From Ignavibacteriota bacterium (GTDB lineage: Bacteria > Bacteroidota > Ignavibacteria > UBA10030 > UBA6906), in NCBI GenBank assembly GCA_003152875.1, contig PMBF01000065.1:78543-113486 (forward strand): 34,944 bases of DNA. The letters are read 5' to 3'. This document shows, piece by piece, positions 3,784-34,081 of the stretch (its first letter is position 1; every line of letters starts with the position of its first letter). A program made the position numbers and the translations under genes. Below the pieces are notes generated by a model. It was not told the DNA's origin, ran no database searches, and saw nothing but the letters and a program-made list of their open reading frames with translations.

Positions 3784-3907
3784 GCGGACTCCTCAAGGAT
3801 CTCCCCGGAAGGGCGCCGATCCGTTCCTTCCGACCGAAGAAGCGAGTGCGCCCTCTATGGATAGCCCATCCGCGACTGTAGGCCAACGGAGGCCAATCCA
3901 ATATCGC

Positions 3908-3934
3908 AAAAATCCGGCTCAGATAATCAGCCGG
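3908..3934 (-). terminator. Rho-independent terminator of the cox operon
   Basis: Read on the minus strand, a GC stem CCGGCT/AGCCGG (6 bp, 9-base loop) is followed by A and five T. It lies about 165 bases after the stop of the DUF420/CtaM gene and about 125 bases before the phosphatase start, so it most likely ends the cupredoxin-to-ctaM transcript. The stem is short, so termination may be partial and allow readthrough into the phosphatase and copper ATPase genes. Confidence 0.6.
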
Positions 3935-3956
3935 GTGAGGTTTGCGGCCGGGTCCG

Positions 3957-3972
3957 TCCGGCTGAAGCCGGA
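3957..3972. repeat. Perfect inverted repeat, hairpin with 2-base loop
   Basis: TCCGGCT and AGCCGGA flank a central GA, forming a 7 bp stem. It shares its CCGGCT/AGCCGG core with the terminator stem only 23 bases away, so the two could form alternative pairings in RNA. There is no T-tract after it on either strand. Confidence 0.55.
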
Positions 3973-4099
3973 GGCGGCGGGGGGGAGAGGGGAGTACTTT
4001 GATGAAGCAGACTATTCACGGCTGCCGGAGAGGTCAGGCAACCCCGCTTTCCTCCGGGGCCAGAGCGGGAGAGGCGCAGCGAAGAGGAGCCTCCGCCGT

Positions 4100-4528
4100 T
4101 CACAGCGCTCCCGGGGACACCTGATAGAGCATGAGGTAGATCACCACCCCGGTAACCGATACGTATAGCCATACCGGAAGCGTCCACCGGGCAATCCGCC
4201 TGTGCCGGTCGAACCTGCGCGCAAGTCCCCGGCTGAGCGTGATCACCGCAAGCGGCGGCACGGCAACCGCGAGCACTGTGTGGCTGACAAGGATGCCAAA
4301 GTACACAGTCCGGATGAAACCTGTCCCTCCGAACCGGACTGACCCCACCTGTGAGTGGTAGATCAGATATGACGTGAGGAAGAGCGCGGATGAAACGAGG
4401 GCCGAGATCATGAAGGCCCTGTGCTGCGCGATCCGTTTGTGGCGGATCAGGTAAAACCCGGTCAGTAGTAGAACGGCTGACGTCCCGTTTAGTGCAGCAT
4501 TGAGCAGGGGGAGATCGTGGATTGTCAC
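4100..4528 (-). CDS. ctaM: DUF420 membrane protein, CtaM/YozB-like oxidase assembly factor
   Basis: The real gene is 142 residues starting at GTG 4528; a longer open frame running upstream is a shadow of ctaB. The GTG is preceded by GGAGA with 7-base spacing, and the protein then begins TIHDLPLLNAALNG, as DUF420 proteins do. Four hydrophobic segments follow, with conserved-looking His/Arg positions (LIRHKRIAQHRAFM, YLIYHSQVG, LVSHTVLA, FDRHRRIARW). DUF420 includes CtaM/YozB, which is needed for active heme-a oxidases in Firmicutes; its precise chemistry is not settled. Its place as the last gene after ctaA and ctaB agrees with an assembly role. It is separated from ctaB by 62 bases. Confidence 0.85.
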   Translation of the reverse strand: MTIHDLPLLNAALNGTSAVLLLTGFYLIRHKRIAQHRAFMISALVSSALFLTSYLIYHSQVGSVRFGGTGFIRTVYFGILVSHTVLAVAVPPLAVITLSRGLARRFDRHRRIARWTLPVWLYVSVTGVVIYLMLYQVSPGAL

Positions 4529-4535
4529 GGACTTG

Positions 4536-4540
4536 TCTCC
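4536..4540 (-). promoter_or_regulatory. Ribosome binding site that fixes the ctaM start
   Basis: GGAGA on the minus strand, 7 bases before GTG 4528. It supports the short 142-residue product over the longer open frame, whose upstream part would be out of frame ctaB sequence. Confidence 0.6.
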
Positions 4541-4590
4541 TGGGAAGGACTCGTGCAGGTTGTGGCAGATGCGTTGTGGCGCCTTGCCGG

Positions 4591-5508
4591 TTACCGGTAC
4601 GGGATCAGACGGTCGAAAACCATCACACACATCAGGGCCGGCAGGTAGACGAGAGAGGCCGCGAACAGGCGGCGCGCGGCCATGTTTGAGCGGGATCGCT
4701 GGAGTTGGGAGCCGGCGGCCAGGAAGCCCCCGCCAAGCAGGACTGCCCCGGTGAGGTACACGATCCCGAACATACCACTCAACCAGGGGATGATCGTCAT
4801 CATGACAAGTGCCATGGAATGAACGAGAATATGCCGGCAGGTTTGCGTCCCCTGTAGGTCGATGACGGACAGGAGGCGGTATCCTGCGCGGGAATAGTCC
4901 CGGCGGTACATCCATGCAAGGGAGAGGAAGTGCGGCATCTGCCAGAAAAACAAAATGCCGAAAAGGAGAAGCGCATCCCCGTCTATCGTGTTGCGCGCAG
5001 CCGCCCACCCCATCAGGGGAGGGATTGCGCCCGGGACGGCGCCGACAAGCGTCGCGTGCGGGGTGATGCGCTTCAGGGGCGTATACAGGAAGAGGTAAGA
5101 GACGAGCGTTGCCGCGGCCAGGAACGACGTCAACGGATTGACGAAGAGCGCCAGCTCCGCTATCCCCGCAAGGGCGATGCCGCACCCAAAAAACAGCGCT
5201 TCGAAGGGAGCCAGCCGTCCGGAGGGAAGCGGCCGCTGCTCCGTCCGCTTCATCAAACGGTCGTATCGCCGTTCTATGAACTGGTTAAGGGCCCCGGCCC
5301 CCCCTCCCACCAGGGCTGTGCCCGCCAGAGTGTGCAGGAGCAGCTGGGCCGACAGCGGTTTCGCGGCTCCGCCTGATGCGAGGAGGAAGCCGGCCAGTGC
5401 CGTGAGCACAGAAAGGAACGTCAGCTCAGGTTTCGCGAGGCTGACATAGTCCCACAGACGCCCCCGGTCGATAGTGATGGCGCCCTGCGTATTGACGCTT
5501 GGTTTCAT
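4591..5508 (-). CDS. ctaB: Protoheme IX farnesyltransferase (heme O synthase)
   Basis: The 305-residue integral membrane UbiA-family prenyltransferase adds a farnesyl group to heme b to make heme O, the precursor of heme A. The first Asp-rich motif region reads NQFIERRYDRLMKRTEQRPL at about 95-114, matching the N-x(4)-R-x(2)-D-x-L-M-x-R-T pattern of CyoE/CtaB. The second loop reads RRDYSRAGYRLLSV. About eight to nine hydrophobic helices are visible. The ATG overlaps the ctaA stop by four bases (ATGA), so translation is probably coupled and no Shine-Dalgarno sequence is needed or seen. Product feeds CtaA, encoded immediately upstream. Confidence 0.95.
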   Translation of the reverse strand: MKPSVNTQGAITIDRGRLWDYVSLAKPELTFLSVLTALAGFLLASGGAAKPLSAQLLLHTLAGTALVGGGAGALNQFIERRYDRLMKRTEQRPLPSGRLAPFEALFFGCGIALAGIAELALFVNPLTSFLAAATLVSYLFLYTPLKRITPHATLVGAVPGAIPPLMGWAAARNTIDGDALLLFGILFFWQMPHFLSLAWMYRRDYSRAGYRLLSVIDLQGTQTCRHILVHSMALVMMTIIPWLSGMFGIVYLTGAVLLGGGFLAAGSQLQRSRSNMAARRLFAASLVYLPALMCVMVFDRLIPYR

Positions 5509-6524
5509 GAACGTGAGAGTTGTGCCAAAGTCGATACCTCCGGCTCAGTCTGGCTAAGAGTGAACAGACGGAATGTCCGGAGGGTGATACATGCGCTTGT
5601 TGCCAGGAGCAGCGAGCCAACGGCGACGTGTACGGTAGCGATTTCGACTCCCTTGCCGGTCCAGACGGTCAGGGCGCCGAAGAGGATCTGCATCACCAGA
5701 AGAAGGCCGAGCACGATCGCCGGCTCCCGGAGCCGCTTCTCGTCCTGGTATGCCTTCAGCACGTGGAGAACGAACGAAAGCACCACAATTGCAGTGAGAA
5801 GGGCGCCAAGCCTGTGCGCGAAATTGATCCAAACCTGAGACAGCTCAACCGGCGGAAGCCCCCCTGCAAGGCGATCCTGATTGACAGCCGAGATCCCCGC
5901 GTCGGTGGCCGGCGGGAGCATCTGGCCGTATGAGAGAGGGAAATCAGGAATAGCGAGGCCTGCGTCGCTATGGCGCATCCACGCCCCCAGGATGAGCTGG
6001 ACGAGCAGAATGCCTGAGACGGAGAGGGCCAGCCTGCGTGTCTTGTCGGCCACCGGCATTTCCCTGGGCACCACCCGCTTCCATCCAGGCGAGGTCACCA
6101 GGGCGATGATGACCGTAAGGCCGAAGAACGATTGTGCCAGCGTCGCGTGCATGACCGAGATCGGCGTGGGCAGGAGGAAGAGGACCGTCAGCCCTCCCAG
6201 GACGCCCTGCACGATCACCGCCGCGAGACCCGCGAGGCCGAGGATTCTCACCCAGCGCCTCTCCTCCGCTTTCCAGAGCCAGTAGGCCAGAACAATCATG
6301 AGCATGCCGACGAAGGTAGCCACCATCCGGTGGCCATGCTCGTAGAGAATGCCTCCGACCATCGGGGGCATCAGCTTGCCGTACGAGAGGGGCCAGTCGG
6401 GAACGGAAAGGCCGGAACCGGTGCTTGTGACCAGCCCTCCGGCTATGACCAGGAGAAAGGTGCAGCATGCGGTGAATACCGCAAACCGGTGCAGCCTTCG
6501 TTGGGATGGAGTCCAGGTGTCCAT
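5505..6524 (-). CDS. ctaA: Heme A synthase
   Basis: The 339-residue, eight-helix membrane protein belongs to the COX15/CtaA family, which oxidises the C8 methyl of heme O to the formyl group of heme A. Two related halves are visible: SGLSVPDWPLSYGKLMPP in the first and AGLAIPDFPLSYGQMLPP in the second. Heme-ligand His candidates are EHGHR, VMHATLAQ, NFAHRLG and TVHVAVG. The extracellular loop cysteines known from Bacillus CtaA are absent, as in the cysteine-less class. I place the start at ATG 6524, with AAGGA 9 bases upstream, rather than at an in-frame GTG at 6554 that lacks well-spaced binding sequence. It follows coxB by 34 bases and overlaps ctaB by four. Confidence 0.93.
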   Translation of the reverse strand: MDTWTPSQRRLHRFAVFTACCTFLLVIAGGLVTSTGSGLSVPDWPLSYGKLMPPMVGGILYEHGHRMVATFVGMLMIVLAYWLWKAEERRWVRILGLAGLAAVIVQGVLGGLTVLFLLPTPISVMHATLAQSFFGLTVIIALVTSPGWKRVVPREMPVADKTRRLALSVSGILLVQLILGAWMRHSDAGLAIPDFPLSYGQMLPPATDAGISAVNQDRLAGGLPPVELSQVWINFAHRLGALLTAIVVLSFVLHVLKAYQDEKRLREPAIVLGLLLVMQILFGALTVWTGKGVEIATVHVAVGSLLLATSACITLRTFRLFTLSQTEPEVSTLAQLSRS

Positions 6525-7880: not shown

Positions 7881-10073
7881 TCAGGGCATGTAAAAGAGAA
7901 CCAGGATCAGGATCCAGACCAGGTCCACAAAAAGCCAGTATGCTCCAAACAGGCCTGGAACAATCGACCCCTCTTCCTCCGGCGCGGCGCCCAGGTTGCT
8001 CACACCCTTTCCCGCTGCAAAGACAATCCCGGCAAGGACATGGAGCCCGTGTAAAACGCTGAAGAGGTAATAGAGTCCCAGAAATGTGCTGGAGCCAGGG
8101 ACAAGTCCTGACGAGGAGAGCGAGGCGAGATCAATCGACTTAAACCCGAGAAATGCCGTCGCAAATAGGAGAAAACCGGCAATGCCGAGCCGTGGGGCTA
8201 GGCGCCTCGATGCTCCCAGACAGAGTGTGGCCGCAAGGAGCAAGATAGTGTCTGTGACGGCCGTGCCCCCATGGAGGACGCCGCCGGTGGGCCAGGAAAG
8301 GCTGTTGATCCTGAGGAGCGTATAGGCGGCGGCAAGCGACCCGAAGAGCATGACTTCGGAGGCAAGAAAGAGACCTATGCCAAGAGAGCCGTTTTTCAAG
8401 CCGGTGTCCGGGCGGCGGAAACGGCGGTAAGGCGTCTCCTCCTCAGGGCGCGAAAGGAGGGATCGGCCGGAGGCGTGTCCGGAAGGAGCCCAATCAAGTG
8501 TTGTCGCATCCCAAGGATTCGCGCCCGCGATCTTCCCCCTCTTCAGGCTCCAGAACAGATTGACGATGAAAAAGAGCTGGGTGACGCCGAGGAGCCAGGC
8601 AGAGATGGACATGAATTCATTCCAGTGCAGGACGCCCTGCGCGTGGGCGTATTGGGATCCGCCGTCATAGAGGCGCCGTGAGACACCGGCGAGACCCTGG
8701 ATGAACATCGGGAAGAACACGCCGTTCATGAAGATGAGCGAAAGCAGGAAGTGGATCCGACCCAGTGTCCTGTTCATGAGGCGGCCGGTGACGCGCGGAA
8801 ACCAGTGATAGATTCCGGCAAAAAGGGCGAAAATGGTTCCCGGCGCCACGATGTAGTGGAAGTGGCCGATAACGTAGTATGTGTCGTGGAGATGCATATC
8901 CGTGGGGGCCAGACCCAGGGGAAGCCCCGTGAGGCCCCCGAGGCCGAACATGGGGAGGAACGCCAGGGCAAAGAGCATGGGCGTCGTGAAACGGATGGTC
9001 CCCCCCCAGAGGGAGAGGAGAAGGGATGTCACGATGATGACGGAGGGGATGGAGACGATCAGCGTGGTCGCCTGGAAGAAGCCGCTCATGACGGTTCCCA
9101 TCCCTGTCAGAAACATATGGTGCGCCCAGACGATCATGGAGATGCACCCAAGAGCCACTGTTGCGTAGACCATGCTCCGATACCCGTGAAGCGGCTTCCG
9201 GGTGTTGGTCTGAAGGACTTCCGCCACGATCCCCATGGCCGGGAGGATCAGGACATAGACCTCGGGATGCGCGAGAAACCAGAAGAGGTGCTGCCAGAGC
9301 ACCGGGGCTCCCCCGCCGGTTGCAGGAAGCGGCGATCCCGCGACGATCAGTCCCGTGGGGAGGAAGAAGCTGGTCCCGGCGACGCGGTCCATCAGCTGCA
9401 GTGCGGCCGCGGTTTGCAGGGGCGGGAACGCCAGCAGCAGGAGGAACGCCGACACGAGCTGTGCCCAGACCAGGAACGGCATATCCATGAACGAGATGCC
9501 GGGACGCCGGAGCTGGATCACCGTCGTGATCATATTGATGGAGCCGAGAAGCGAGGAAATCCCGAGCAGGAACATGCCGGCAAGCCAGAGGGTCTGTCCG
9601 TCGTTTGCCACAACGGAGAGCGGGGGATAGGACGTCCATCCCGAGCTCGCAGCGCCTCCCGGATGGGCGAAGCCGGCCAGCAGGGTCATGCCGCCCGCCA
9701 CATAGGTCCAGTAGCTGAGCATGTTGATGCGCGGGAAGGCCATGTCGCGCGCGCCGATGAGAAGGGGCACCAGGTAGTTGCCGAATGCCCCCACCCCAAG
9801 AGGGACGATGCCCAGGAACACCATGATGGACCCGTGCATCGCGCCAAGCTGGTTGTAGAATTCCGGGAGCATGACGCCCTCGGGCATTCTCTCCGGTCCA
9901 AGGATCCGTCCCAGCCAGGGAAGTGCCTGCCCGGGATAAGCGAGCTGCCAGCGCATGAGCAGCATGAAGAGAAACCCGACGAGCAGAAAGGCCAGGGAAG
10001 TCATGGCATACTGGATGCCGATGACCTTATGATCGGTGGAGAATACCCTGCGGGCCAAAGTGGAGTAGGACAT
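7881..10073 (-). CDS. ctaD: Cytochrome c oxidase subunit I+III fusion, K-channel lysine absent
   Basis: The 730-residue membrane protein joins subunit I (about 1-530) to a short five-helix subunit III (about 555-730: FLASEVMLFG, LHGLHVLAG, YWLFVDLVWI). Subunit I reduces O2 at heme a3-CuB. Heme a ligands are His80 and His406, the a3 ligand is His404, and CuB ligands are His269, His318 and His319, with Tyr273 in HPEVY for the cross-link. D-channel residues look complete: Asp110 (ARDMAFPR), Asn99, Asn117, Glu271. The ungapped stretch from WAHHMF to LWGG shows Ile347 where A-type oxidases carry the K-channel Lys (IPSVII against VPTGIK). It follows the cupredoxin gene by 39 bases. A 128-base gap to the CPICFG gene holds no clear promoter or terminator. 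No obvious Shine-Dalgarno is seen before ATG 10073. Confidence 0.95.
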   Translation of the reverse strand: MSYSTLARRVFSTDHKVIGIQYAMTSLAFLLVGFLFMLLMRWQLAYPGQALPWLGRILGPERMPEGVMLPEFYNQLGAMHGSIMVFLGIVPLGVGAFGNYLVPLLIGARDMAFPRINMLSYWTYVAGGMTLLAGFAHPGGAASSGWTSYPPLSVVANDGQTLWLAGMFLLGISSLLGSINMITTVIQLRRPGISFMDMPFLVWAQLVSAFLLLLAFPPLQTAAALQLMDRVAGTSFFLPTGLIVAGSPLPATGGGAPVLWQHLFWFLAHPEVYVLILPAMGIVAEVLQTNTRKPLHGYRSMVYATVALGCISMIVWAHHMFLTGMGTVMSGFFQATTLIVSIPSVIIVTSLLLSLWGGTIRFTTPMLFALAFLPMFGLGGLTGLPLGLAPTDMHLHDTYYVIGHFHYIVAPGTIFALFAGIYHWFPRVTGRLMNRTLGRIHFLLSLIFMNGVFFPMFIQGLAGVSRRLYDGGSQYAHAQGVLHWNEFMSISAWLLGVTQLFFIVNLFWSLKRGKIAGANPWDATTLDWAPSGHASGRSLLSRPEEETPYRRFRRPDTGLKNGSLGIGLFLASEVMLFGSLAAAYTLLRINSLSWPTGGVLHGGTAVTDTILLLAATLCLGASRRLAPRLGIAGFLLFATAFLGFKSIDLASLSSSGLVPGSSTFLGLYYLFSVLHGLHVLAGIVFAAGKGVSNLGAAPEEEGSIVPGLFGAYWLFVDLVWILILVLFYMP

Positions 10074-10112
10074 GAAGAGGGCTGAACGATTCCTGCGGGA
10101 TTGCAGAGTAGC

Positions 10113-10802
10113 CTACTTTGCCTCGTATGTAAAATCTGCAGTGGCCGGGCCGGGGCCCGTCACCTTCACGCTCAAAGTGCGGGCGCCATAGCGTTCGTGC
10201 CATGCCTCGATGGTATAGTCGCCGGGAGGGAGGTTTCTGATCGTATATGATCCATCATCGCCTGTTACGGCGAAGAAAGGGTGCGTGAACACGCCGATGT
10301 ACGCCCCCATCCAGGGATGAACCTCGCATTTCACCTTGAAGGTCTCGGCTTGCTCGAACCGCTTGCTCATCTTCATGCCCGCGCGCGGCTGGGCAATGTT
10401 GAATTGCGGGTTGGCTTTCGACACGGAATGGACGTTGTGGAGCGTCGGATCCTCATTGATGATCTCGACTTCCTGCCCAGCCATGACACCCAGCACATGG
10501 GGATGGTACTGGCACCCTTTCTGATCGAGAACGGCACTTTTACCCGGGAGGTCGAATTTCCTGCTTGGGAGGCCGGTCTTTACCGCAACCAGGACGTTGC
10601 GCAGGGTTCCGTTGGGGTTGACGAGAACGTCCTCTGCGTAGACAGGGCCCTTGTGTTGGGCCATGCATTTCGGGTCGGCGTTCATCATGAGCAGGAAGGG
10701 CTTGGGGGGGGTCCCGTGGAATAGCACCTTACCCGAAACATCGCCGGCGGACGATGCCGCTGTGCAGAGGACCAGAAGAATGGCGAGGGGGAGCGCCCTC
10801 AT
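10113..10802 (-). CDS. Secreted cupredoxin-like protein with a C-terminal transthyretin-like domain
   Basis: The 229 residues start with a signal peptide (MRALPLAILLVLCTAASSAG). The middle resembles a type 1 copper protein: His122 in TLHNVH, then KCEVHPWM with Cys159, His162 and Met165. The Cys-x2-His-x2-Met spacing is like amicyanin. Cys46 and Cys97 could form a disulfide. From about 170 to the end lies a small beta domain of the carboxypeptidase-regulatory type (TGDDGSYTIRNLPPGDYTIEAW). It is the first gene of the oxidase operon, with a strong GGAGG four bases before the ATG. No cytochrome c is encoded nearby, so it may pass electrons or copper to subunit II; that is an inference from position and ligands. 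It could instead be a structural plastocyanin-like surface protein. Confidence 0.72.
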   Translation of the reverse strand: MRALPLAILLVLCTAASSAGDVSGKVLFHGTPPKPFLLMMNADPKCMAQHKGPVYAEDVLVNPNGTLRNVLVAVKTGLPSRKFDLPGKSAVLDQKGCQYHPHVLGVMAGQEVEIINEDPTLHNVHSVSKANPQFNIAQPRAGMKMSKRFEQAETFKVKCEVHPWMGAYIGVFTHPFFAVTGDDGSYTIRNLPPGDYTIEAWHERYGARTLSVKVTGPGPATADFTYEAK

Positions 10803-13036: not shown

Positions 13037-15214
13037 CTACCGGTTGTGGTGCGGACGGTCATGCCGCTCGTGTCTCTCGCGGTGTTCGCCGTGCTCAGCG
13101 TGATCGCCGTCGGTCGGATGCTCCCCCGGTTCGGCGGGCTTCATCAGCACTTTTCTGCTGAGCTTCCACCTCCCCTGCTCATCCTTGTCGGTGATCTTCA
13201 CGTCGAACTGATCCCCGACCTTGACAACGTCCGAGGGTTTTTCCACACGCTTCACATCGAGCTGCGACACGTGCACGAGGCCTTCCTTTCCGGGCAGAAA
13301 CTCGACGAAGGCGCCGAAGTCCATCACCTTCTTCACGGTCGCATGATAGATCTTCCCGACCTCCGGGATCTCTGTGATCCGCTCGATCTCGCGGATGGCC
13401 TTGTCGGCCGCTTCCTGCGATGTTGCCGCAACCACGACCGTTCCGTCGTCCTGGATGTCGATTTCCGCTCCGCTGTCCTTCACGATCTGCCGGATGACCT
13501 TTCCTCCGGGTCCGATCACGGCCCCGATCATGTCGACGGGGATCTTGAGTGTGGTCAGCCTTGGGGCGAAGGGCGACATGTCTGCGCGGGGCTGCGGAAT
13601 GGCCTGGTCCATGATGGACAGGATATGCAGCCTTCCCTCGCGGGCCTGTTCCAGCGCCGAACGCATGACGTCGATCGAGATGCCCCGGACCTTGATATCC
13701 ATCTGGCAGGCGGTGATGCCGTCGCGCGTCCCTGCGATCTTGAAGTCCATGTCCCCCAGGTGGTCTTCGTTGCCGAGAATGTCGCTCAGGACGGCAACGC
13801 GGGCCCCTTCGGTGACCAGGCCCATGGCGATCCCGGCGACCGACTTCTTCAGCGGCGCGCCGCCGTCGAAGAGCGCCAGCGATGCGGCGCAGACCGTCGC
13901 CATCGACGAAGAACCGTTCGACTCCAGGATGTCGGAAACGATGCGCACCGTGTAGGGGAATTCGGTCTCCGGCGCCATGATGTTTTTCAAGGATCGCTCG
14001 GCAAGGTTGCCGTGCCCGATCTCACGCCGCCCCACGCCCCCCATGCGACCAACCTCGCCGACGGAGAAAGGCGGGAAGTTGTAGTGGAGCATGAAGCGTT
14101 TGGTGGAGTCGGGGAGAAGACCGTCGATGATCTGTTCATCGAGCTTGGTCCCGAGCGTTATGGTGGTGAGACTCTGCGTCTCTCCGCGCGTGAAGAGCGC
14201 CGAGCCATGCGTGCGGGGGAGCAGGCCCACCTCGATGGTGATAGGCCGGATGTCGCGCAGGCCGCGTCCGTCCAGACGCTTGCCCTGCGACAGGATCATG
14301 TCCCGCATCTCGGTGTACTCGATATCATGGAGGATCGCATGGATCCTCTTGTTCTCATCGGGATACCGTTCCGCGAGTCCCGCGTCCACCTCGGCGTAAA
14401 TTGCTTCGGTCTGCTTCGCGCGGTCTTCCTTGAGCATGGGTGTATTGGCAAGCGTTTTGAGGCGGCCGGCCACGGCGGCGCGCACGTCCTCCTCCAGGCC
14501 TTTCGGGCGCTCGACGGGAACCGGTGCGCGCTTGGCGCGCCCCACCTCGGCGCACAGCTCACGCTGGATCCTGCATAGCTGCTTGATGGTCTCATGGCCG
14601 AAGGAGAGGGCCTCAAGCATGTCCTGCTCGGTGATCTCCCGTCCCTCTCCCTCCACCATCATGATCGACTCTTCCGTCCCCGCGATGCTGATATCGATAT
14701 CGGTCGACTGCAGCTCGGTGAACGTGGGATTGATGATCCATCGTCCCTCCACGCGTCCCACCCGAACCTCAGCTACCGGACCCTCAAACGGGATGTCGGA
14801 GATCATGAGTGCCGCCGACGCGGCCACGGCCCCAAGGACATCGGCGTCGTGCTCCTGATCTGACGAATAGACCGTAACGACAACCTGCGTCTCGTACTGG
14901 AACCAGTCGGGGAACATGGGCCTGATCGGCCGGTCGATTAACCGGGCGGAGAGGATCTCCTTTTCCGATGGCCGGGCTTCCCGCTTGAAGAATCCCCCGG
15001 GGATTTTACCCGCCGAAGCCGCTTTTTCGCGGTACTCGACCTGGAGAGGGAAATAGTCGAACCTGTCGGAAAGCTCCTTGGACGCCACCACTGTGGCGAG
15101 GACCATCGTTTCCCCGAAGCGCGCCATGACGGCGCCGTCCGCCTGTTTTGCGAACCGCCCGGTTTCGATGGAAAAAGCCTTCCCTCCGATTTCAATCTCT
15201 TTGATGACTTTCAT
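13037..15214 (-). CDS. pnp: Polyribonucleotide nucleotidyltransferase (PNPase) with a His-rich tail
   Basis: The 725 residues form the usual PNPase: two RNase PH domains (first from residue 1; second with GKRLDGRGLRDIRPI and FTRGETQSL), a helical linker, a KH domain (GPGGKVIRQIVKDSGAEIDI) and an S1 domain (GKIYHATVKKVMDFGAFVEF). The catalytic region LFDGGAPLKKSVAGIAMGL and DILGNEDHLGDMDFK are intact. The enzyme degrades RNA 3' to 5' with phosphate and works in the cytosol and degradosome. The last 29 residues are an extra charged tail with eight His residues (GDHAEHGEHRERHERH and on). It is the last gene of the rimP-to-pnp cluster, 44 bases after rpsO, the order seen in many bacteria. Confidence 0.97.
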   Translation of the reverse strand: MKVIKEIEIGGKAFSIETGRFAKQADGAVMARFGETMVLATVVASKELSDRFDYFPLQVEYREKAASAGKIPGGFFKREARPSEKEILSARLIDRPIRPMFPDWFQYETQVVVTVYSSDQEHDADVLGAVAASAALMISDIPFEGPVAEVRVGRVEGRWIINPTFTELQSTDIDISIAGTEESIMMVEGEGREITEQDMLEALSFGHETIKQLCRIQRELCAEVGRAKRAPVPVERPKGLEEDVRAAVAGRLKTLANTPMLKEDRAKQTEAIYAEVDAGLAERYPDENKRIHAILHDIEYTEMRDMILSQGKRLDGRGLRDIRPITIEVGLLPRTHGSALFTRGETQSLTTITLGTKLDEQIIDGLLPDSTKRFMLHYNFPPFSVGEVGRMGGVGRREIGHGNLAERSLKNIMAPETEFPYTVRIVSDILESNGSSSMATVCAASLALFDGGAPLKKSVAGIAMGLVTEGARVAVLSDILGNEDHLGDMDFKIAGTRDGITACQMDIKVRGISIDVMRSALEQAREGRLHILSIMDQAIPQPRADMSPFAPRLTTLKIPVDMIGAVIGPGGKVIRQIVKDSGAEIDIQDDGTVVVAATSQEAADKAIREIERITEIPEVGKIYHATVKKVMDFGAFVEFLPGKEGLVHVSQLDVKRVEKPSDVVKVGDQFDVKITDKDEQGRWKLSRKVLMKPAEPGEHPTDGDHAEHGEHRERHERHDRPHHNR

Positions 15215-15258
15215 ACGAGTCTAGCTCTTGCCTCCACACTGGTGATTCAGCAGCCGCC

Positions 15259-15528
15259 TTATTTGCGGATCTGGAGATCGGCAATGATTTTTCTGTAGCG
15301 CTCCATATTCTTCTCCTGGAGATAATCCAGAAGGCGGCGGCGCTTGCCGACCATTTTCAACAGGCCCACACGGGAATGGTGGTCCTTCTTGAATTTCTCA
15401 AAGTGCGGCGCCAGGTCGTTGATCCGGGCGGTCAGCAGTGCGATCTGCACCTCCGGTGTGCCGGTGTCCTTGTCACTCCTACCAAACTTCCTGACGATTT
15501 CGGCCTTCTGTTCCTTCATAATTGCCAT
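15259..15528 (-). CDS. rpsO: Ribosomal protein S15
   Basis: From ATG 15528 the product has 89 residues, the standard S15 length, and lines up with E. coli S15 without gaps at the N-terminus. AGGAG lies 7 bases upstream. A longer open frame to 15636 is ribF sequence in another frame. Recognisable segments are [40 protein letters not shown] and [13 protein letters not shown]15 binds 16S rRNA in the platform of the 30S subunit. It lies 19 bases after the ribF stop and is followed by pnp, a conserved pair. Confidence 0.97.
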
Positions 15529-15547
15529 TGCCCTGCTCCTTCGGTAA

Positions 15548-16513
15548 TCAACTGATGTGGTTTTGAGAATGATGCTCTTCAAACTCCTTGATGACCGCGA
15601 GCGAAGCCTCGAGGTCCCGCCGGATCTGGTCGACAAGGTCCTGGAGCGACGGGAAGCGGCGCTCTTCGCGCAACCTGGAGATGAACTCTACCGTCAGCGT
15701 GTGACCGTACACATCGCCCTCGAACTCCAGCAGGTGCACTTCGTAGGTTTCTTCGAGCCCCATGCCGACCGTCGGCCGCACGCCGATGTTCATCATTCCG
15801 TACCGCCGGATTCCGTCGAACGCCGCGGCCACCACGTACACTCCGCGACCGGGGATCATCTTCCCGGGGTGTGACGGCTCGAGGTTTGCCGTCGGGAAGC
15901 CCAGCGTTCGCCCCCGTTTGTCCCCGTCCACCACCCTTCCCTGGAGTGTGTACCGGCGTCCCAGCTGCCCGTTGGCTCGCCGGATATCGCCCTCGGCGAG
16001 CGCAGCCCGAATCGTCGTGCTGCTGACCACCTGCCCATCGAGCGTGAACGCCGGGATGCGCTCGATGGTGAAGCCGAATTCCGTGCCCAGCCGCTCGAGC
16101 TCCTCGATCCCCCCCTCGCGTTCCCTGCCGAAATGATGGTCGTGCCCCACGACGACATGCCGTGCCCCCACTGCGCCCGCGACCTGCCCGGAGACGAACT
16201 CCCGCGCCGTCTGCCGCGAGAACTCCCTGGTGAACGGGAGGATGACCAAGAGGTCGATTCCCAGTCCCTCTAGCAGCCCGGCCCGTTCCCCGGGGGTGGT
16301 CAGGACCCGCACCGGCTCTCCCACGGTGCCCACGACGCTCTTCGGGTGGGGATCGAATGTGATCACAACGGCTCTTCCCCCCGCCCGGCGGGCTTCCGTG
16401 ACCACCTTGTCCAGGATGACCCGGTGCCCAAGGTGGACGCCGTCGAACGTGCCGACGGTGACGACAGAATTGCGATCGGGTGCGACCGATCCGGCCGAGC
16501 GTGCAACCATCAT
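15548..16513 (-). CDS. ribF: Bifunctional riboflavin kinase / FAD synthetase
   Basis: The start at ATG 16513 overlaps the truB stop as ATGA, giving 321 residues; the open frame further upstream is truB in another frame. The N-terminal half is the FMN adenylyltransferase: [37 protein letters not shown] and SSTTIRAAL. The C-terminal half is the riboflavin kinase: [28 protein letters not shown] and [14 protein letters not shown]. The enzyme converts riboflavin to FMN and then FAD in the cytosol. Its place between truB and rpsO is common and probably reflects shared transcription rather than pathway logic. Confidence 0.96.
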
Positions 16514-17301
16514 TCCGTGGGCGCGCCGGCCTCCTGAAGGTTCCGAGCCGGGCTTGATGTTCTCTCCGCCCCGAGTGTGCCGCCGTCCAATGCCTGCGCG
16601 ATGGCGACAAGATCGTCGATGGTGGAGGCCTCTTCGATTCTGTAGGGTCCGATGCGTGTCCTCCGGAGCGACGACACGTATGCCCCGCAGCCCAGAAGTT
16701 GCCCGCAATCGTCGACCAGGGTCCGGATGTAGGTACCCTTGGAGCACACTACGCTCATGGTGACTTCGGGTATGTCGATGCGCACGGGTGTGATCGCATG
16801 GATGGTCACCTCCCTCGGGCTTCGCTCGACCTCGATCCCCCGCTTGGCGTACCTGTACAGGCGCTTGCCCCCTACCTTGACCGCCGACCACATGGGGGGG
16901 ATCTGGCGCTGCGGTCCCACGAAGCCGGAGAGCGCCTCACGCACGCCGGTCTCCGTCAGGCTGCCGGTGGGGCGTGTTTCGGTCACGGGGGTTTCTGCGT
17001 CGAAACTCGGAGTGCGGGAACCCAGGAGCATCGTCACCTCATATTCCTTCTCGGCCCCCATGAATCGCCCGATCTCCCGCGTCATCGGTCCGGTGCAGAC
17101 GATGAGCAGGCCGGTTGCCAGCGGGTCGAGGGTGCCCGCATGCCCCGCTTTCTTCACGTGGAACAGGCGGCGTATTTTGTGGATCACGTCGAACGACGTC
17201 CAACCCATCGGCTTGTCGACGAGAAGCATGAAGCCGCCGGACGGTCCGGGCTCATGCGCCAGTGTCGCCGCCATCGCCGCCTGATGTGGAGTCGCGCTCA
17301 T
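16510..17301 (-). CDS. truB: tRNA pseudouridine(55) synthase
   Basis: 263 residues. The catalytic Asp is in GHAGTLDPLATGLL; other family segments are LLVDKPMGWTSFDVIHKIRR, QIPPMWSAVKVGGKRLY and SKGTYIRTLVDDCGQLLGCG. The enzyme makes pseudouridine 55 in the T-loop of tRNAs. The start is uncertain: ATG 17301 overlaps rbfA by 50 bases, while ATG 17274 would leave 23 bases of overlap. Both put the start upstream of the conserved LLVDKP. The stop overlaps the ribF start. The short C-terminal extension is rich in Ala, Gly and Pro and lacks an obvious PUA domain. Confidence 0.95.
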   Translation of the reverse strand: MSATPHQAAMAATLAHEPGPSGGFMLLVDKPMGWTSFDVIHKIRRLFHVKKAGHAGTLDPLATGLLIVCTGPMTREIGRFMGAEKEYEVTMLLGSRTPSFDAETPVTETRPTGSLTETGVREALSGFVGPQRQIPPMWSAVKVGGKRLYRYAKRGIEVERSPREVTIHAITPVRIDIPEVTMSVVCSKGTYIRTLVDDCGQLLGCGAYVSSLRRTRIGPYRIEEASTIDDLVAIAQALDGGTLGAERTSSPARNLQEAGAPTE

Positions 17302-17635
17302 CGTTGATCTTTTTGATAATCTGATTGATCCGGTCGACCCGGTCGAGCGTGTCGTCGCGGAAGAATTCCAGGGCCGGCATGAACCGGAGCCGGATTCTGC
17401 GGGCCAGCATGCCGCGGATTTCGGGTTTGTTCTTCTCCAGCAGGTTCATCGTTCTCGTCCGGATCTCCTCCGAGCCGTACACGCTGAAATACACCTTGGC
17501 AATCCGCAGGTCCTGGGTCACGCGCACATCAACAACCGTGGTGAACCCGAGAGAGGGGCCGTTGTATTCCCGCTGCAGGATCCCCCCGATCTCCTCCTTC
17601 AGCAGCGAAGCGACCTTCTCCGTCCTGATGGACAC
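17252..17635 (-). CDS. rbfA: Ribosome-binding factor A
   Basis: 127 residues starting with GTG 17635, which has a run of G (AAGGGGGGCCG) just upstream and begins 10 bases after the infB stop. The KH-like fold of RbfA is recognisable from VASLLKEEIGGILQREY, FTTVVDVRVTQDLRIAKVYF and RIRLRFMPALEFFRDDTLDR. The protein binds the 30S subunit during late 16S rRNA maturation. The C-terminal tail is Gly/Asp rich. Its 3' end overlaps truB. Confidence 0.95.
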   Translation of the reverse strand: MSIRTEKVASLLKEEIGGILQREYNGPSLGFTTVVDVRVTQDLRIAKVYFSVYGSEEIRTRTMNLLEKNKPEIRGMLARRIRLRFMPALEFFRDDTLDRVDRINQIIKKINDERDSTSGGDGGDTGA

Positions 17636-27852: not shown

Positions 27853-28755
27853 TCAAGGCGCATTCTCCTGACCCGCGCCCCCTGCGTCGAGCGAGCGTCT
27901 CAGGCCCGGGATGGAATCGGAAAGCTCCGAGACGAGCACGCCCCCGATGATGAGCGCGCCTCCCAGGGCACCGTCGATCCCCTCCCTGAGGACGAAAAAG
28001 GCAATCACTGCCGCGAAGACGGGCTCCATCGTGAAGATGACCACCGCCCTCACCGGCGTCGTGTCCTTCTGGTACCGGGTCTGGATCAGGAATGTGAGCA
28101 CGGTCGCAAACAGCGTGAGGAACACCAGAATGGCGGCTCCTCCCGTGCTCACGCTGAGCCTGGGGGGGCCGAAGAAGAGCAAGCCGATCAAGGCCAGGAC
28201 AGCGTTGGTCGTCAATTGCAGGAACATCAGACGCATCGTGGTGACCTCGCGCGAGACAATGTCGAGGTAGACGATGTACACGGCGAAGACCACCGCACAG
28301 ACAACCGTGAGCGCATCCCCCGCGTTGAATGTCGATCCGGCGGGCGATGTGAGAAGCCAGAGCCCTCCCGACACGATCGCCACGCCCACGACATTTCCGA
28401 CCTTCGGCGCCCTGCGCTCCATCATGAACTGCAGAAGAGGCACGAAGATGACCATCATCCCGGTGATGAATGCGGACTTCGAAGCGGTGGTGATCGTCAG
28501 CCCCACCGTTTGGGTGAGGAACCCGAAGAAAACGAAGATGCCCAGGATGACCCCCTTGGCCACGGATCGCCAGGGGATCGGGAAGATCGCGCGCCACGCG
28601 AACGCGGTCACAAGCAGCGAGGCCGCGCTGAACCGCACGAACACCATCTGCAAGGGGGTCACCTCGAGGAGGACGATCTTTCCGAGTGTGAAGGTGCTCC
28701 CCCAGATGGCCGTGGCGGCTAGCAGCAGCAATTCCGCTTTTCCGGCTCGTGTCAT
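27853..28755 (-). CDS. EamA/DMT-family permease
   Basis: 300 residues from ATG 28755, overlapping the DUF362 gene stop as ATGA. There are about ten hydrophobic helices in two EamA repeats: LLLLAATAIWGSTFTLGKIV opens the first, and ALTVVCAVVFAVYIVYLDIV opens the second. TRYQKDTTPVRAVVIFTMEP is the typical segment before the last helices. The family exports or imports small metabolites in the inner membrane; the substrate cannot be told. The open frame that extends upstream is DUF362 sequence in another frame. Confidence 0.9.
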   Translation of the reverse strand: MTRAGKAELLLLAATAIWGSTFTLGKIVLLEVTPLQMVFVRFSAASLLVTAFAWRAIFPIPWRSVAKGVILGIFVFFGFLTQTVGLTITTASKSAFITGMMVIFVPLLQFMMERRAPKVGNVVGVAIVSGGLWLLTSPAGSTFNAGDALTVVCAVVFAVYIVYLDIVSREVTTMRLMFLQLTTNAVLALIGLLFFGPPRLSVSTGGAAILVFLTLFATVLTFLIQTRYQKDTTPVRAVVIFTMEPVFAAVIAFFVLREGIDGALGGALIIGGVLVSELSDSIPGLRRSLDAGGAGQENAP

Positions 28756-29876
28756 GCGCCTGCCGGAACGGCGGGTACAGCGGTGCCGCGGCGCTCGTAC
28801 TCCTGGAAGAGGCGCCCCCAAGGCGTGTTGCGGCGCCACTGCTCGAAGACCTTCCTGTCCCTTACCGGCCAGCGGTAGTAGTCGTGGTAGGTTTCCGAGC
28901 CGAGGATGAAGGCGTGAACCATCGGCGTGCGGAAGAAGAGCTTCTGCATCCCCTTGAGCGGGCCGAACCAGGCAAGGTTGCCGAAGAGGCTCACGCCGTT
29001 GTTGCCGACCGTGAACCCCCACGATTCTCCGGTAATGTCGGCGCCTTCCAGGTTGATGTCGCGCACGTCCCCCGTGCCGAGTCCGTCCTCATGCGCCATC
29101 CGGATGTACCGGATGCCGAGCGGGTCGAAGCCCATGAGCTTTGCGGAAACGGCATCCACGGCCACCTGATCGGAGCTCGCCAGGATGTAGTTCTTGACCA
29201 CCGGACGCATCGTCCGCGGTCCGGGCCCGTCCCCGGCCGTGGTGCCGTCCACCATGGCGAAGATGCCCGTGTGGATTTCCTTCTGGATGGCAAGGAGATC
29301 CACCAGCGTTTCGTGGATCCAGCTGTGTGTGTAATGGCGCCGCGTATTCAGCAGCCCGCCGAAGGCATTCTTCATCGCGCCGGTCGTGGTGGTATAGATG
29401 TGGCACTTGACCGTCGGAAGGTGGACGATGTTTTTCCCGGCAAAGTAGTCGGGGATCTGAATGCCGTCCGGGAAGACCTTGTCGAGTGCATGCATGCGGG
29501 CCTTGGGCTTGTAGGCGATCCAACGCATATCCGTCTGCCTGAAATTGAAGAGCACGGGGATACCGTACTCGCGGAACAGGGGGACGTACTTGTTGAGGTC
29601 TTCACCCTTGAAGGCATCCGTGACCACCGTCTTGTTCTGCACGCAGCTGATGTCGCCGTAGCCTCCGTTCCGGAGGGCGAGGATGGCCCCCTCGAGCTGC
29701 CAGGGGCTGGTGTTCGCCGCGGGGAACGGAAAATGCCAGGAGATATTGTCTTTCAGGATCGTCCCGGCGCTCCGGTCGAGCGCGGAGGACATTCCCGCCA
29801 TGCCGGCAAGTTTCTGGTAGTCCTCGAGAACCGTCTCTGGCGAGGTTTTCAGGACGGCCACTGTTGATTTGCTCAT
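28752..29876 (-). CDS. DUF362 domain protein
   Basis: 374 residues with GGAG seven bases before ATG 29876. The DUF362 core runs from about residue 40 to 290: NIVHLPTVKCHIYTTTTGAM, KNAFGGLLNTRRHYTHSW, IFAMVDGTTAGDGPGPRTMR and DQVAVDAVSAKLMGFDPLG. No ferredoxin-type Cys cluster is attached, unlike some family members. The C-terminal part (from about 300) is rich in aromatic and basic residues. The function of the family is unknown. It is the first gene of the operon and is translationally coupled to the EamA permease, so the two may act on the same compound. Confidence 0.8.
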   Translation of the reverse strand: MSKSTVAVLKTSPETVLEDYQKLAGMAGMSSALDRSAGTILKDNISWHFPFPAANTSPWQLEGAILALRNGGYGDISCVQNKTVVTDAFKGEDLNKYVPLFREYGIPVLFNFRQTDMRWIAYKPKARMHALDKVFPDGIQIPDYFAGKNIVHLPTVKCHIYTTTTGAMKNAFGGLLNTRRHYTHSWIHETLVDLLAIQKEIHTGIFAMVDGTTAGDGPGPRTMRPVVKNYILASSDQVAVDAVSAKLMGFDPLGIRYIRMAHEDGLGTGDVRDINLEGADITGESWGFTVGNNGVSLFGNLAWFGPLKGMQKLFFRTPMVHAFILGSETYHDYYRWPVRDRKVFEQWRRNTPWGRLFQEYERRGTAVPAVPAGA

Positions 29877-30108: not shown

Positions 30109-31770
30109 TCAGAACGCTGCAATTTCCTCGTGCAGGCCGAAGACTTCTGCCAGCGCCGAGCACATCTCGCCAAGCGTGACGTAGGCGTGGGCGCATTCCA
30201 GCAGCACCGGGAGGAGGTTGCTGCTCCCCGCTGCGGCAGCGCTGAGGTTCTTCAGGGCGGCGCGCACATTCTCCGGGCTCCGCCCGGCGCGGACCTCGGC
30301 AATCCGTTTCCGCTGTTTTGCTTCAACCCCGGGCGAGATCTCCAGAAGGGGAATCGTGACGTGTTCATGTTCTTCCACAAAGTCGTTCACGCCTACAATG
30401 GTCTTCTGCCTGGAATCGAGCTCCATCTGATACTGGTAGGCTGCGGCGGCGATTTCCCGCTGAAAAAAGCCCTGCTCGATAGCGGGGATGACACCGCCGA
30501 ACGCGTCGATCCTTTCGAAATAGGCCTGGGCCTCCTTCTCCATCCGGTCGGTGAGCGCCTCCACAGCGTAGCTTCCCGCAAGCGGGTCTATGGTGTTCAC
30601 CACTCCCGTCTCGTGCGCGATGATCTGCTGCGTCCGCAGGGCGATCTTGACGGCATTCTCCGAGGGGAGCGCAAGTGTTTCGTCCATGGAATTCGTATGG
30701 AGCGACTGGGTTCCGCCGAGCACCGCGGCAAGCGCCTGGAACGCAGTCCGTACGATATTGTTCTCCGGCTGCTGGGCGGTGAGCGTGCATCCGGCAGTCT
30801 GCGTGTGGAAGCGGAGCATCATGGAGCGCGGGTCCTTTGCCCCGTAGCGTTCCTTCATGCGCTTTGCCCAGATCCGCCGTGCAGCCCTGAACTTGGCGAT
30901 CTCCTCGAAGAAGTCGAGATGGGAATTGAAAAAGAACGAAAGGCGCGGCGCGAATGCGTCTATGTCCAGCCCTCGTGCGATGCAGGCCTCCACATAGGCG
31001 AAGCCGTCGGCCAGTGTGAACGCCAGCTCCTGGAGCGCTGTCGACCCCGCCTCCCGGATATGATATCCGCTGATGGAGATGGGGTTCCACTGCGGCATTT
31101 CGCGCGAGCAGAACTCGATCATGTCGGTCACAATCCGCATGCTCGGCCGTGGAGGATAGATCCACTCCTTCTGGGCGATGTATTCCTTGAGGATGTCGGC
31201 CTGAATCGTGCCGCGGAGCTCCGCCGGTTTGGCCCCCTGACGCGCCGCGACGGCCGCGTAGAGCGCCACTGCCATCGCCGCGGGGGCGTTGATGGTCATC
31301 GAAGTCGAGATATCCTTCAGGGAGATCCCCCTGAAGAGGATTTCCATGTCTGCCAGCGAACTGACCGAGACCCCGCAGATTCCGACCTCTCCTTCCGACA
31401 CCGGATCATCACAGTCCCGCCCCATGAGCGTCGGCAGGTCAAACGCCACGGAAAGCCCCATCTGGCCGTGGGATAAAAGGTAATGGTACCGATCATTGGT
31501 GTCCTCAGGAGTCCCGAAGCCGGCAAACTGCCTCATCGTCCAGAGCTTCCCCCTGTACATGTTTGTATGGATGCCCCTGGTGTACGGGTACTCTCCCGGA
31601 AACCCGATATCGGCAAGATAGTTGATGCGGGCCACATCATCCGGACCATAGAGAAGATTGACAGGCTCGCCGCTGACGGTGGTGAAGCTGACACCCGTGC
31701 GGGCTCCTGCCTGTCCGGCGCGGTCTTGCCAGCGACCCTTTGCCTCTTGATAGCCGTTCACGCCCGCCAT
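30109..31770 (-). CDS. B12-dependent acyl-CoA mutase large subunit, isobutyryl-CoA mutase-like residues
   Basis: 553 residues from ATG 31770, chosen because AGGAGGGG lies six bases upstream. The protein is the substrate-binding TIM-barrel subunit only, with no B12-binding domain (no DxHxxG), so it must pair with a small subunit encoded elsewhere. Family segments are [45 protein letters not shown] with His237, and [18 protein letters not shown]. The two residues that hold the methylmalonyl carboxylate in methylmalonyl-CoA mutase, Tyr89 and Arg207 in Propionibacterium numbering, are Phe82 and Gln200 here, as in isobutyryl-CoA mutase. It may thus rearrange isobutyryl-/butyryl-CoA or a related acyl-CoA. 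Generic annotation would be methylmalonyl-CoA mutase. Confidence 0.9.
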
Positions 31771-31776
31771 GATGCT

Positions 31777-31784
31777 CCCCTCCT
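31777..31784 (-). promoter_or_regulatory. Ribosome binding site that fixes the mutase start
   Basis: AGGAGGGG on the minus strand, six bases before ATG 31770. Two in-frame starts further upstream (31827 and the ATG within this site) would have no such sequence. Confidence 0.65.
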
Positions 31785-31954
31785 TCATCCAACACCCGCC
31801 CTTATCCCGGCTCCACCGCCTGAACAATCGTTTTCAGAAGCGCGCTCCCTTGCTGCGGCCGGCCACCGGGATCATTCGCCGTGTGACATTCCAGGCTGAC
31901 GGATCAGTACCCACGCAGCCCCATGCAGTCAGCCCGTTTGGTCTGAAATCGACG

Positions 31955-32016
31955 TCAGACTTCGTCCTCAGACTGTTTCGTCAGACATCAACGTCCCCTC
32001 AACGTCCGTCAACGTC
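31955..32016. repeat. Short tandem repeats, 13 bp then about 10-11 bp period
   Basis: TCAGAC recurs at 31955, 31968 and 31981, exactly 13 bases apart, as three imperfect 13-mers. Directly after, TCAACGTC recurs at 31988, 31999 and 32009. The array touches the edge of the mutase pseudogene fragment. Confidence 0.6.
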
Positions 32017-32019
32017 TCC

Positions 32020-32141
32020 CGCCAAGCCTCACGCAGGCCCGGGCGCATTCCAGCAGTGCAGGCAAGAGGTTGCCTCTCCCTGCGGCGGCGCCGAGGTTTT
32101 TTAAGAGGGGCGCGCATTTCCCGAGCTCCGCCCGGCGCACC
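32020..32141 (-). pseudogene. Frameshifted remnant of a second acyl-CoA mutase gene (3' end)
   Basis: About 120 bases resemble the 3' part of the intact mutase gene (about 30168-30295) in the same orientation. Shared stretches on the plus strand include GGGCGCATTCCAGCAG and CTCCGCCCGGCGC. On the minus strand one frame gives NLLPALLECARA against [12 protein letters not shown] in the intact protein, while the preceding part (REMRAPLK) is in another frame. The shift falls at an A6 run in CTTAAAAAACCTC; a second two-base loss lies some 20 bases before it. Similarity stops at both ends, so only this piece remains. It looks like a tandem copy that was mostly deleted, though an independent paralogue fragment is possible. 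Confidence 0.72.
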
Positions 32142-32239
32142 TGACAACCCGGCCGGACGGATCGGTCCACCTTCCACCACTTCCATCACCGCCGTCTGAC
32201 GCTTGCCTCGGACTCCGGCAGGATCCGTGCTTCCGGCCC

Positions 32240-34081
32240 CTACAGTCTCCCGAATCTTCTGTCAAGCTCCTCGGTCGAGATCCTCAGCACGATGGGACGC
32301 CCGTGCGGGCAGACATAGGGCATCGAGGTCGCGAATAGCTGGTCGATGAGCGACCGCATCTCTTGCTCGTTCAGCGGGTCGCCGGCCTTGATCGCCGAGC
32401 GGCACGAAAAGGACTTGGCCAGGTTGTCGCGCGCGTCCATCATCCCCTGCTGCTGGTATTCCTTGTAGAGCCCGAGGATTTCCTGCACGATGCGCTCCTC
32501 CGAACCGGCCTTCACATCGGCCGGGACTCCTTGAATGGACAACGTGTTCCTGCCGAACAGCGCCAGATCGAACCCCAGCATCTGAAAATGGCGGAACAGC
32601 TCCTCGACAAGCGCATAATCCCCCGGCGTCATTTGAACGGTGTACGGAAACAGGAGCTGCTGGGCGGACTGAAATCCGGTCTTGAATCGTTCCAGGGCGC
32701 GCTCGTAGAGCACCCGTTCGTGGGCAACATGCTGGTCCACGATCATGAGCCCGCTCCGGATCTGGCAGAGGATATACTTGTTGTGGAGCTGCCAGATCAA
32801 TCCGTGGGAGTCGCCTTCGGGGCGGTCGGCCTGATGTGTGAGGACGCTCCCCTGCCGCGGGGGAACCTCTTCCCTGCCCGGGGGAGCGAGAAGGCTCCAA
32901 GCCATCCCGTTGCCGCCGGACTCGTGGGGCGGGAAGATCTCGCCGGTTGCCGTATCGACCGGTGCGGGGGGCCATGGCGAATCCGCGGACGGCCAGCGAT
33001 GCTGCCGCGGCGAGAATTGCAGTTCAACGTCGGACCCCGGGGAGCCCTGATCCATCGACAGGACGGGAAAGGCCTGAGCCCCGGAGAGACCTTTGCGGAC
33101 CAGTGCGCCGGCCATCCGATAGATGCCCTGCTCGTCGTCGAACTTCGCCTCCATCTTGGAGGGGTGCACATTGACATCCACGCGGCGCGGATCAACTTCA
33201 ATGAACAATATGAAGAACGGAAACGTGCCTTTCAGAAGGAGATTCTCATAGCTGCTGAAGACCGCGTGACTGATGTTGCGGTGCACGATGAACCTGCCGT
33301 TCAGAAAAAGATATTGATGCGTGCGGGTCTTCTGACCGAAGGAGGGCTTGCCGATGTAGCCGGAAAGCGACAAGGCTTCCGTCCTCTCCTCAACCGGGAT
33401 CAGGGATTCCATCAGCCTCTCGCCGAACACGTCCGACAGGCGGGTCTCCAGCGCGGCCGGCTTCAGGTTGAAGATCGTATCGTCGCCGTTCACAAACCGC
33501 AGCTCGAGCTCCGGATGGCTGATGGCGACGCGGTGGACGGCCTCATACACATGCCGGAACTCGGTCGCCCTGCTTTTCAGGAACTTCTTTCGGGCGGGGA
33601 CATTGAAGAAGAGGTTCTGTATGGTGACGGTAGTGCCCTGCTCCCTGGCCTCGCGAGTGACCCGCGGCTGGCCGCCCCCGTCAATGCGCACCATGACGGC
33701 GGCATCGTCCCCGGCACGGCGGGTCTTCATGGTGACCTGGGCAACCGCAGCGATCGAGGCAAGCGCTTCTCCGCGGAAGCCGTAGGTCCGGATCTCCTCC
33801 AAGTCTTCATAGGTGGAGATCTTGCTCGTTGCGTGCCGGAGGAACGACGCCACGGCATCGTCCTGGTCCATCCCGGTGCCGTTGTCGGCCACCTGGAGGT
33901 ATGTGACTCCCCCGTCCTTCACCGTCACGGTGATCCGTGTCGCGCCGGCGTCCAGGGCATTCTCGAGGAGCTCTTTTGCCGCCGAATCGGGCCGCTGGAT
34001 GACTTCGCCCGCCGCGATCTTGTTTGCAACGTGGTCGGGCAGGATCTGGATCTTCCTGCGACCGTCAGCTGATGACGTCAC
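32240..34081 (-). CDS. mutL: DNA mismatch repair protein MutL
   Basis: 613 residues starting with GTG 34081, which overlaps the ftsY stop as GTGA. The GHKL ATPase part shows ELLENALDAGA, DNGTGM, GFRGEALASI and FFNVPARKKFLKS, then the transducer domain with VDVNVHPSKMEAKF. A linker of about 100 residues is rich in Pro and Ser. The C-terminal domain carries the endonuclease metal site DQHVAHERVLYE (449-460; the usual Ala is Val), with SCRSAIKAGD and CPHGRP. It is therefore a nicking-type MutL, as expected in organisms without MutH. The protein couples MutS mismatch recognition to strand cutting. Confidence 0.96.
   Translation of the reverse strand: MTSSADGRRKIQILPDHVANKIAAGEVIQRPDSAAKELLENALDAGATRITVTVKDGGVTYLQVADNGTGMDQDDAVASFLRHATSKISTYEDLEEIRTYGFRGEALASIAAVAQVTMKTRRAGDDAAVMVRIDGGGQPRVTREAREQGTTVTIQNLFFNVPARKKFLKSRATEFRHVYEAVHRVAISHPELELRFVNGDDTIFNLKPAALETRLSDVFGERLMESLIPVEERTEALSLSGYIGKPSFGQKTRTHQYLFLNGRFIVHRNISHAVFSSYENLLLKGTFPFFILFIEVDPRRVDVNVHPSKMEAKFDDEQGIYRMAGALVRKGLSGAQAFPVLSMDQGSPGSDVELQFSPRQHRWPSADSPWPPAPVDTATGEIFPPHESGGNGMAWSLLAPPGREEVPPRQGSVLTHQADRPEGDSHGLIWQLHNKYILCQIRSGLMIVDQHVAHERVLYERALERFKTGFQSAQQLLFPYTVQMTPGDYALVEELFRHFQMLGFDLALFGRNTLSIQGVPADVKAGSEERIVQEILGLYKEYQQQGMMDARDNLAKSFSCRSAIKAGDPLNEQEMRSLIDQLFATSMPYVCPHGRPIVLRISTEELDRRFGRL

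What the first reader, a model, noticed from the sequence alone, without database searches (positions are those of the whole stretch)
32020..32141. Decayed second copy of the mutase 3' end upstream of the intact gene
About 120 bases in the mutL-mutase gap match the intact gene's 3' part, same orientation, with two frame changes including one at an A6 run. It implies a past tandem pair of mutase genes followed by loss of one, or replacement of one mutase by another. This may relate to the change in substrate residues.
Basis: seen in the sequence. Interest (0 to 1): 0.58.

Follow-up and report, generated by a model that had tools for sequence, protein, structure and literature searches.

The report
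Decayed scrap of neighbouring mutase gene
A roughly 136-base broken copy of the end of a vitamin-B12-type mutase gene lies just upstream of the working gene; it looks like an ordinary dead gene remnant of this lineage.

Summary
Window 32017-32151 (minus strand) matches 30165-30306, inside the 3' part of the acyl-CoA mutase large-subunit gene 30109-31770, same orientation, about 78% identity. Score 119 against at most 35 in 500 shuffles; E = 6.5e-21 within the genome. It is more broken than reported: 22 substitutions spread evenly over codon positions (7/7/8) and 8 indel events of 1-2 nt. On a tree of this stretch it is sister to the adjacent gene alone, with the divergence on the fragment's branch.

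Relatives share the order mutL-mutase-DUF362 with one mutase. In 28 other distinct mutL-mutase gaps none holds mutase-like DNA, and 26 are 23-174 bp against 469 here. None of 390 other genomes of the class has the fragment. So the intact gene sits in its inherited place and the fragment arose in this lineage, after its split from every genus held.

Replacement of one mutase by another, and a link to substrate residues, are not supported: the Phe at the Tyr89-equivalent site is in 46 of 46 distinct orthologue rows, own included. Verdict: an inert pseudogene scrap, ordinary.

The parts
32017..32151 (-). Decayed partial copy of the mutase gene 3' part (gene nt 1465-1606); about 78% identity, 8 indel events, no reading frame kept
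30165..30306 (-). Source stretch inside the intact mutase gene (C-terminal residues about 489-535)
30109..31770 (-). Intact acyl-CoA (methylmalonyl-CoA-type) mutase large subunit, 553 aa, in its inherited position
31771..32239 (-). Enlarged mutL-mutase intergenic gap (469 bp; 23-174 bp in 26 of 28 other distinct loci)
31771..32010 (-). Rest of the gap between fragment and gene start; only a weak, unproven colinear resemblance to the mutase 3' end plus its downstream spacer
32240..34081 (-). mutL, upstream neighbour, conserved order
28752..29876 (-). DUF362 protein gene, downstream neighbour, conserved order

Best explanation
The stretch is a non-functional remnant of a local, same-strand duplication that involved the 3' part of this mutase gene, made in this lineage after it separated from all genera held. 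A duplicate of at least about 140 bp came to lie between mutL and the original gene, and then decayed without constraint by substitutions and small indels. Most likely a larger tandem unit (mutase, or its 3' end plus downstream spacer) was duplicated and most of the upstream copy was deleted; that step is inferred. The remnant does nothing. Shown: homology, orientation, broken frame, even spread over codon positions, own-gene origin, absence from relatives. Inferred: the size of the original duplication, the order of deletions, and the lack of any function.
For: Score 119 against a shuffle maximum of 35; only one second place in the genome, E 6.5e-21. Substitutions fall 7/7/8 on codon positions 1/2/3, with 8 indel events of 1-2 nt. 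Sister to the adjacent gene alone (support 1.0) among 45 reference rows including the own gene, fragment branch 0.31, own branch near 0; identity 76% to the own gene against at most 54% to any orthologue. None of 28 other distinct mutL-mutase gaps has mutase-like DNA above its shuffles. None of 390 other class genomes has the fragment beyond stretches of 24-42 nt in seven of them. No RNA family, no folding excess (z 0.52), no promoter- or terminator-like site, no Pfam match in two overlapping ORFs.
Against: Third codon positions show no excess of differences, so the gene seems almost unchanged since the duplication while the fragment changed by a quarter; this is unexpected under equal neutral rates, but the numbers (7/7/8) are small. 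At 0-based gene index 1582 (codon 528) the fragment has G (Arg), the majority state in relatives (30 of 47 rows), where the own gene has A (His), so at least one change may be on the gene side. No same-genus genome is held, so timing is bracketed from one side only. Whole-gene duplication is not shown: the flanks of the fragment have no significant match to the gene.
Confidence: 0.9

Rival explanations
1. Only a short stretch (about 140 bp) was copied, for example by template switching or repair synthesis, and inserted upstream; there never was a second mutase gene. (A sub-case of the best explanation, differing in the size of the event.)
For: Only gene nt 1465-1606 is recognisable; the 88 bp before it and the gene's last 56 nt show no significant match.
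Against: With permissive scoring the similarity runs on colinearly through the gene end and the downstream spacer to the end of the gap, better than 484 of 500 and 488 of 500 shuffled tails in two schemes, but not at all in two stricter schemes.
Confidence: 0.35
2. An older mutase was replaced by a different one acquired from elsewhere, and the fragment is what is left of the old gene.
For: Same-strand position beside the gene; at one codon the fragment keeps the majority residue of the relatives.
Against: Fragment is sister to the present gene, 76% against at most 54%; the present gene is in the conserved gene order and falls with its own family, as mutL does.
Confidence: 0.04
3. The copy is kept for a function, such as a small RNA or a leader element of the mutase mRNA.
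For: It survives at 78% identity, on the same strand, upstream of the mutase.
Against: No RNA family, folding no better than shuffles (z 0.52), no promoter- or terminator-like site, absent in relatives; being a direct repeat, its transcript from that strand would not pair with the mutase mRNA.
Confidence: 0.03
4. Assembly artefact (mixed strains or a mis-join).
For: The genome is in 120 contigs and the reads could not be inspected.
Against: The copies differ by over 20% including indels, the gene order on both sides is the conserved one, and the window holds no N.
Confidence: 0.03

Closest known systems
Prokaryotic pseudogenes from disabled native duplications (64-genome survey, PMC522871; passages read)
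   Same: Intergenic similarity to a gene with several disablements; that paper names disabling of native duplications as one of three suggested origins.
   Different: Here it was recognised mainly at DNA level and by its position beside its parent; how its length compares with the catalogued cases was not checked.
Methylmalonyl-CoA-type acyl-CoA mutase large subunits (PF01642, TIGR00641; closest solved 4r3u, 2-hydroxyisobutyryl-CoA mutase large subunit)
   Same: The parent gene is a clear full-length member.
   Different: The fragment codes for no usable part; the parent has Phe at a site that is Tyr in 1req and Phe in 5req, as have all its orthologues examined.

Membership tests
Duplicated pseudogene (gene remnant) | Similarity to a functional gene well above chance | tested here: met
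   119 against shuffle maximum 35 of 500; E 6.5e-21
Duplicated pseudogene (gene remnant) | Disablements of the reading frame | tested here: met
   8 indel events of 1-2 nt
Duplicated pseudogene (gene remnant) | No coding constraint since duplication | tested here: met
   Differences 7 of 45, 7 of 46, 8 of 44 at codon positions 1, 2, 3; small numbers
Duplicated pseudogene (gene remnant) | Derived from a native copy, not foreign | tested here: met
   Sister to the adjacent gene, support 1.0
Remnant of an ancestral pair of whole mutase genes | Relatives keep two mutases at this locus | tested here: not met
   No adjacent second mutase in 59 relatives at E up to 1e-60; 0 of 28 other gaps with mutase-like DNA
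Remnant of an ancestral pair of whole mutase genes | Remains of other parts of the gene | tested here: inconclusive
   No match to the 5' 1464 nt; weak resemblance of the tail to the gene end plus spacer only with permissive scoring
Methylmalonyl-CoA-type mutase (parent gene) | Full-length MM_CoA_mutase domain | tested here: met
   PF01642 positions 2-512 of 512, 741.7 bits
Functional small RNA or leader | Known family, conserved presence or unusually stable structure | tested here: not met
   Rfam none, z 0.52, not present in relatives
Functional small RNA or leader | Transcription | not testable with these tools
   no expression data

The most novel reading that the evidence does not exclude
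The remnant marks a whole second mutase that existed only in this genus, perhaps with its own specificity, and was lost recently enough that a congener still carries both.
Probability: 0.07. Interest if true: 0.25.

Novelty: new member of a known kind. Interest (0 to 1): 0.07.

Why it matters
It matters little: a small, well-bounded example of a lineage-specific local duplication decaying to nothing. Its use is negative. It argues against the idea that this locus once held two inherited mutases or swapped one for another, and it shows that the Phe at the substrate site is old and general in the group.

Tried and rejected
Function as RNA, leader or promoter: Rfam search, folding and promoter/terminator scan gave nothing. 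Overlapping ORFs 31968-32189 (-) and 31769-32104 (+): no Pfam match up to E 1.

Remains of other gene parts in the gap: the head (32152-32240) matched nothing; the tail (31771-32010) against gene end plus spacer, or spacer alone, had 13-23 of 300 shuffles at or above the observed score in two permissive schemes and 223-232 of 300 in a strict one. Joint extension: 16 and 12 of 500 shuffled tails reach the observed score in two schemes; in two stricter schemes there is no extension. Left as inconclusive.

Base rate: in 543,563 bases of the same genome, 8 of 210 spacers of at least 80 bp (crude greedy ORF calling) had some match on the same contig at E up to 1e-4, this one included. The other hit on contig C91 is a tandem pair of ABC-transporter ATPase genes (pstB-like by recall), not a remnant. 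Of the six others, one (C110) is a frame-broken relative of a nearby gene, one (C30) a local repeat, and the rest unclear or paralogues missed by the ORF caller. So matches of this kind are uncommon but not unique.

Possible recoding: several paralogues were listed with an in-frame stop. Of eight fetched, seven have it as the last codon of the aligned stretch, an ordinary end (six TGA, one TAA), and one (L175) has an internal stop. Dropped.

Papers: three searches, listings only; PMC522871 passages read. None of the listed titles and abstract starts describes this locus; no stronger claim about print is made.

Rows dropped: L011 and L031 as identical duplicates and L049 as not reaching this part, for the tree; L011 and L031 again in the residue count; L036, L044 and L051 as second copies of L031, L122 and L133 when counting gaps (judged by equal contig length and equal values). 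For the mutase and mutL trees L021, L036, L044 and L051 were left out, and pieces of 300 residues or less.

Full report
What is there. The window lies in a 3.96-Mb draft genome, contig C91. The best protein relatives are labelled Ignavibacteria, Ignavibacteriales or Bacteroidetes, so the genome probably belongs to that group; its own name is not given. Reading down the minus strand the order is ftsY, mutL (32240-34081), mutase (30109-31770), DUF362 gene (28752-29876), an EamA-type transporter, ispF-like and DedA-type genes (family checks for mutL, mutase and DUF362; the other names are recalled). The mutase is a full-length methylmalonyl-CoA-type large subunit (PF01642 2-512 of 512); the best-scoring solved relative is 2-hydroxyisobutyryl-CoA mutase 4r3u.

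The observation. Window 32017-32151 aligns with 30165-30306 on the same strand, score 119; 500 dinucleotide shuffles reach at most 35. In the whole genome this is the only second place, 78% over 126 nt, E 6.5e-21, and the repeat finder sees it too. The rest of the gap, 31771-32020, has no other place in the genome.

How it decayed. Over 135 aligned positions there are 22 substitutions, 7, 7 and 8 at codon positions 1, 2 and 3, and 8 indel events of 1-2 nt. That is the pattern of DNA that is not translated. At four positions where 46 of 47 other orthologue rows have the intact gene's base (the 47th is a gap), the fragment alone differs (0-based gene indices 1503, 1588, 1594, 1606). At index 1582 (codon 528) the fragment has the majority base of the relatives and the intact gene does not, so a change on the gene's side is possible there.

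Where it came from. On an alignment of the same stretch with 45 reference rows (own gene included) the fragment joins the own gene with support 1.0; the fragment branch is 0.31 and the own branch near zero. Identity is 76% to the own gene and at most 54% to any orthologue, while the own gene itself is 56-63% identical, in this stretch, to the eleven orthologues printed. The copy was therefore most likely made from this gene within this lineage.

Relatives. The protein search covered 60 genomes, the own one included; 57 have mutase matches at E up to 1e-60, and none shows a second mutase next to the first. The two cases of neighbouring matches (G020 C305, G045 C54) have complementary query ranges and read as one paralogue in two pieces. 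The order mutL-mutase is measured in 28 other distinct loci, with gaps of 23-174 bp in 26 and larger ones in two: L042 (371 bp) and L123 (2265 bp, holding other ORFs). In none does the gap match the local mutase better than the best of 100 shuffles. The fragment itself is absent from 390 other genomes of the class, apart from matches of 24-42 nt in seven. No other genome of the genus is held.

Replacement and substrate residues. The mutase of this genome falls among its family in the mutase tree, and so does mutL in its own tree. Against this, the exact neighbours inside the family differ (beside L125 and L130 for the mutase, beside L131 for mutL); support values were not examined. The alignments with 1req and 5req, which differ at this site (Y and F), place the Tyr89 site (numbering recalled) at the F of RQFAGF. 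That F is present in 46 of 46 distinct Ignavibacteria rows, own included. RQFAGF or RQFSGF is found in 52 of the 63 further loci L050-L112 (nearly all from other phyla; L051 is Ignavibacteria), the pattern not being found in 11. The residue is therefore old and unrelated to a recent scrap of the C-terminal part.

Mechanism. The simplest history is a local direct duplication that included at least gene nt 1465-1606, followed by deletions and free decay. Whether the whole gene was copied cannot be decided. The head of the gap matches nothing, and the tail resembles the gene end plus downstream spacer only under permissive scoring (16 and 12 of 500 shuffles reach it). The tail length (240 bp) is not far from what gene end plus spacer would give (288 bp, by coordinates), which fits but does not prove it. 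Nothing suggests a present function.

How common. In 543,563 bases of this genome 8 of 210 spacers showed some match to DNA on the same contig, most of them other things than a clear remnant. Disabled native duplications are one of three suggested sources of prokaryotic pseudogenes (PMC522871, passages).

Verdict.

Noticed in passing
window 30109-31770 (-), residue 82: Phe at the site that is Tyr in methylmalonyl-CoA mutase 1req, with Arg kept in PSMRI; all 46 distinct Ignavibacteria rows, own included, have the Phe. The substrate of this mutL-linked mutase is not established here.
   Followed up: partly
L123 (G018 C13) about 3420-5650: In one same-family genome the mutL-mutase gap holds about 2.2 kb with a 494-aa ORF that looks like a secreted protein and a shorter ORF that looks like a cut nucleotidyltransferase, so this junction has taken other DNA elsewhere (labels by eye).
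   Followed up: no
G000 contig C110 (L173) about 9530-10650: A frame-broken relative (three frames, 36-76% identity) of the nearby 785-aa gene at 15106-17460, a clearer pseudogene candidate than the one studied.
   Followed up: no
L175 (G044 C57), codon 191 of the aligned stretch: One paralogous mutase copy has an internal stop; the other seven fetched cases of a listed stop are ordinary C-terminal ends.
   Followed up: partly
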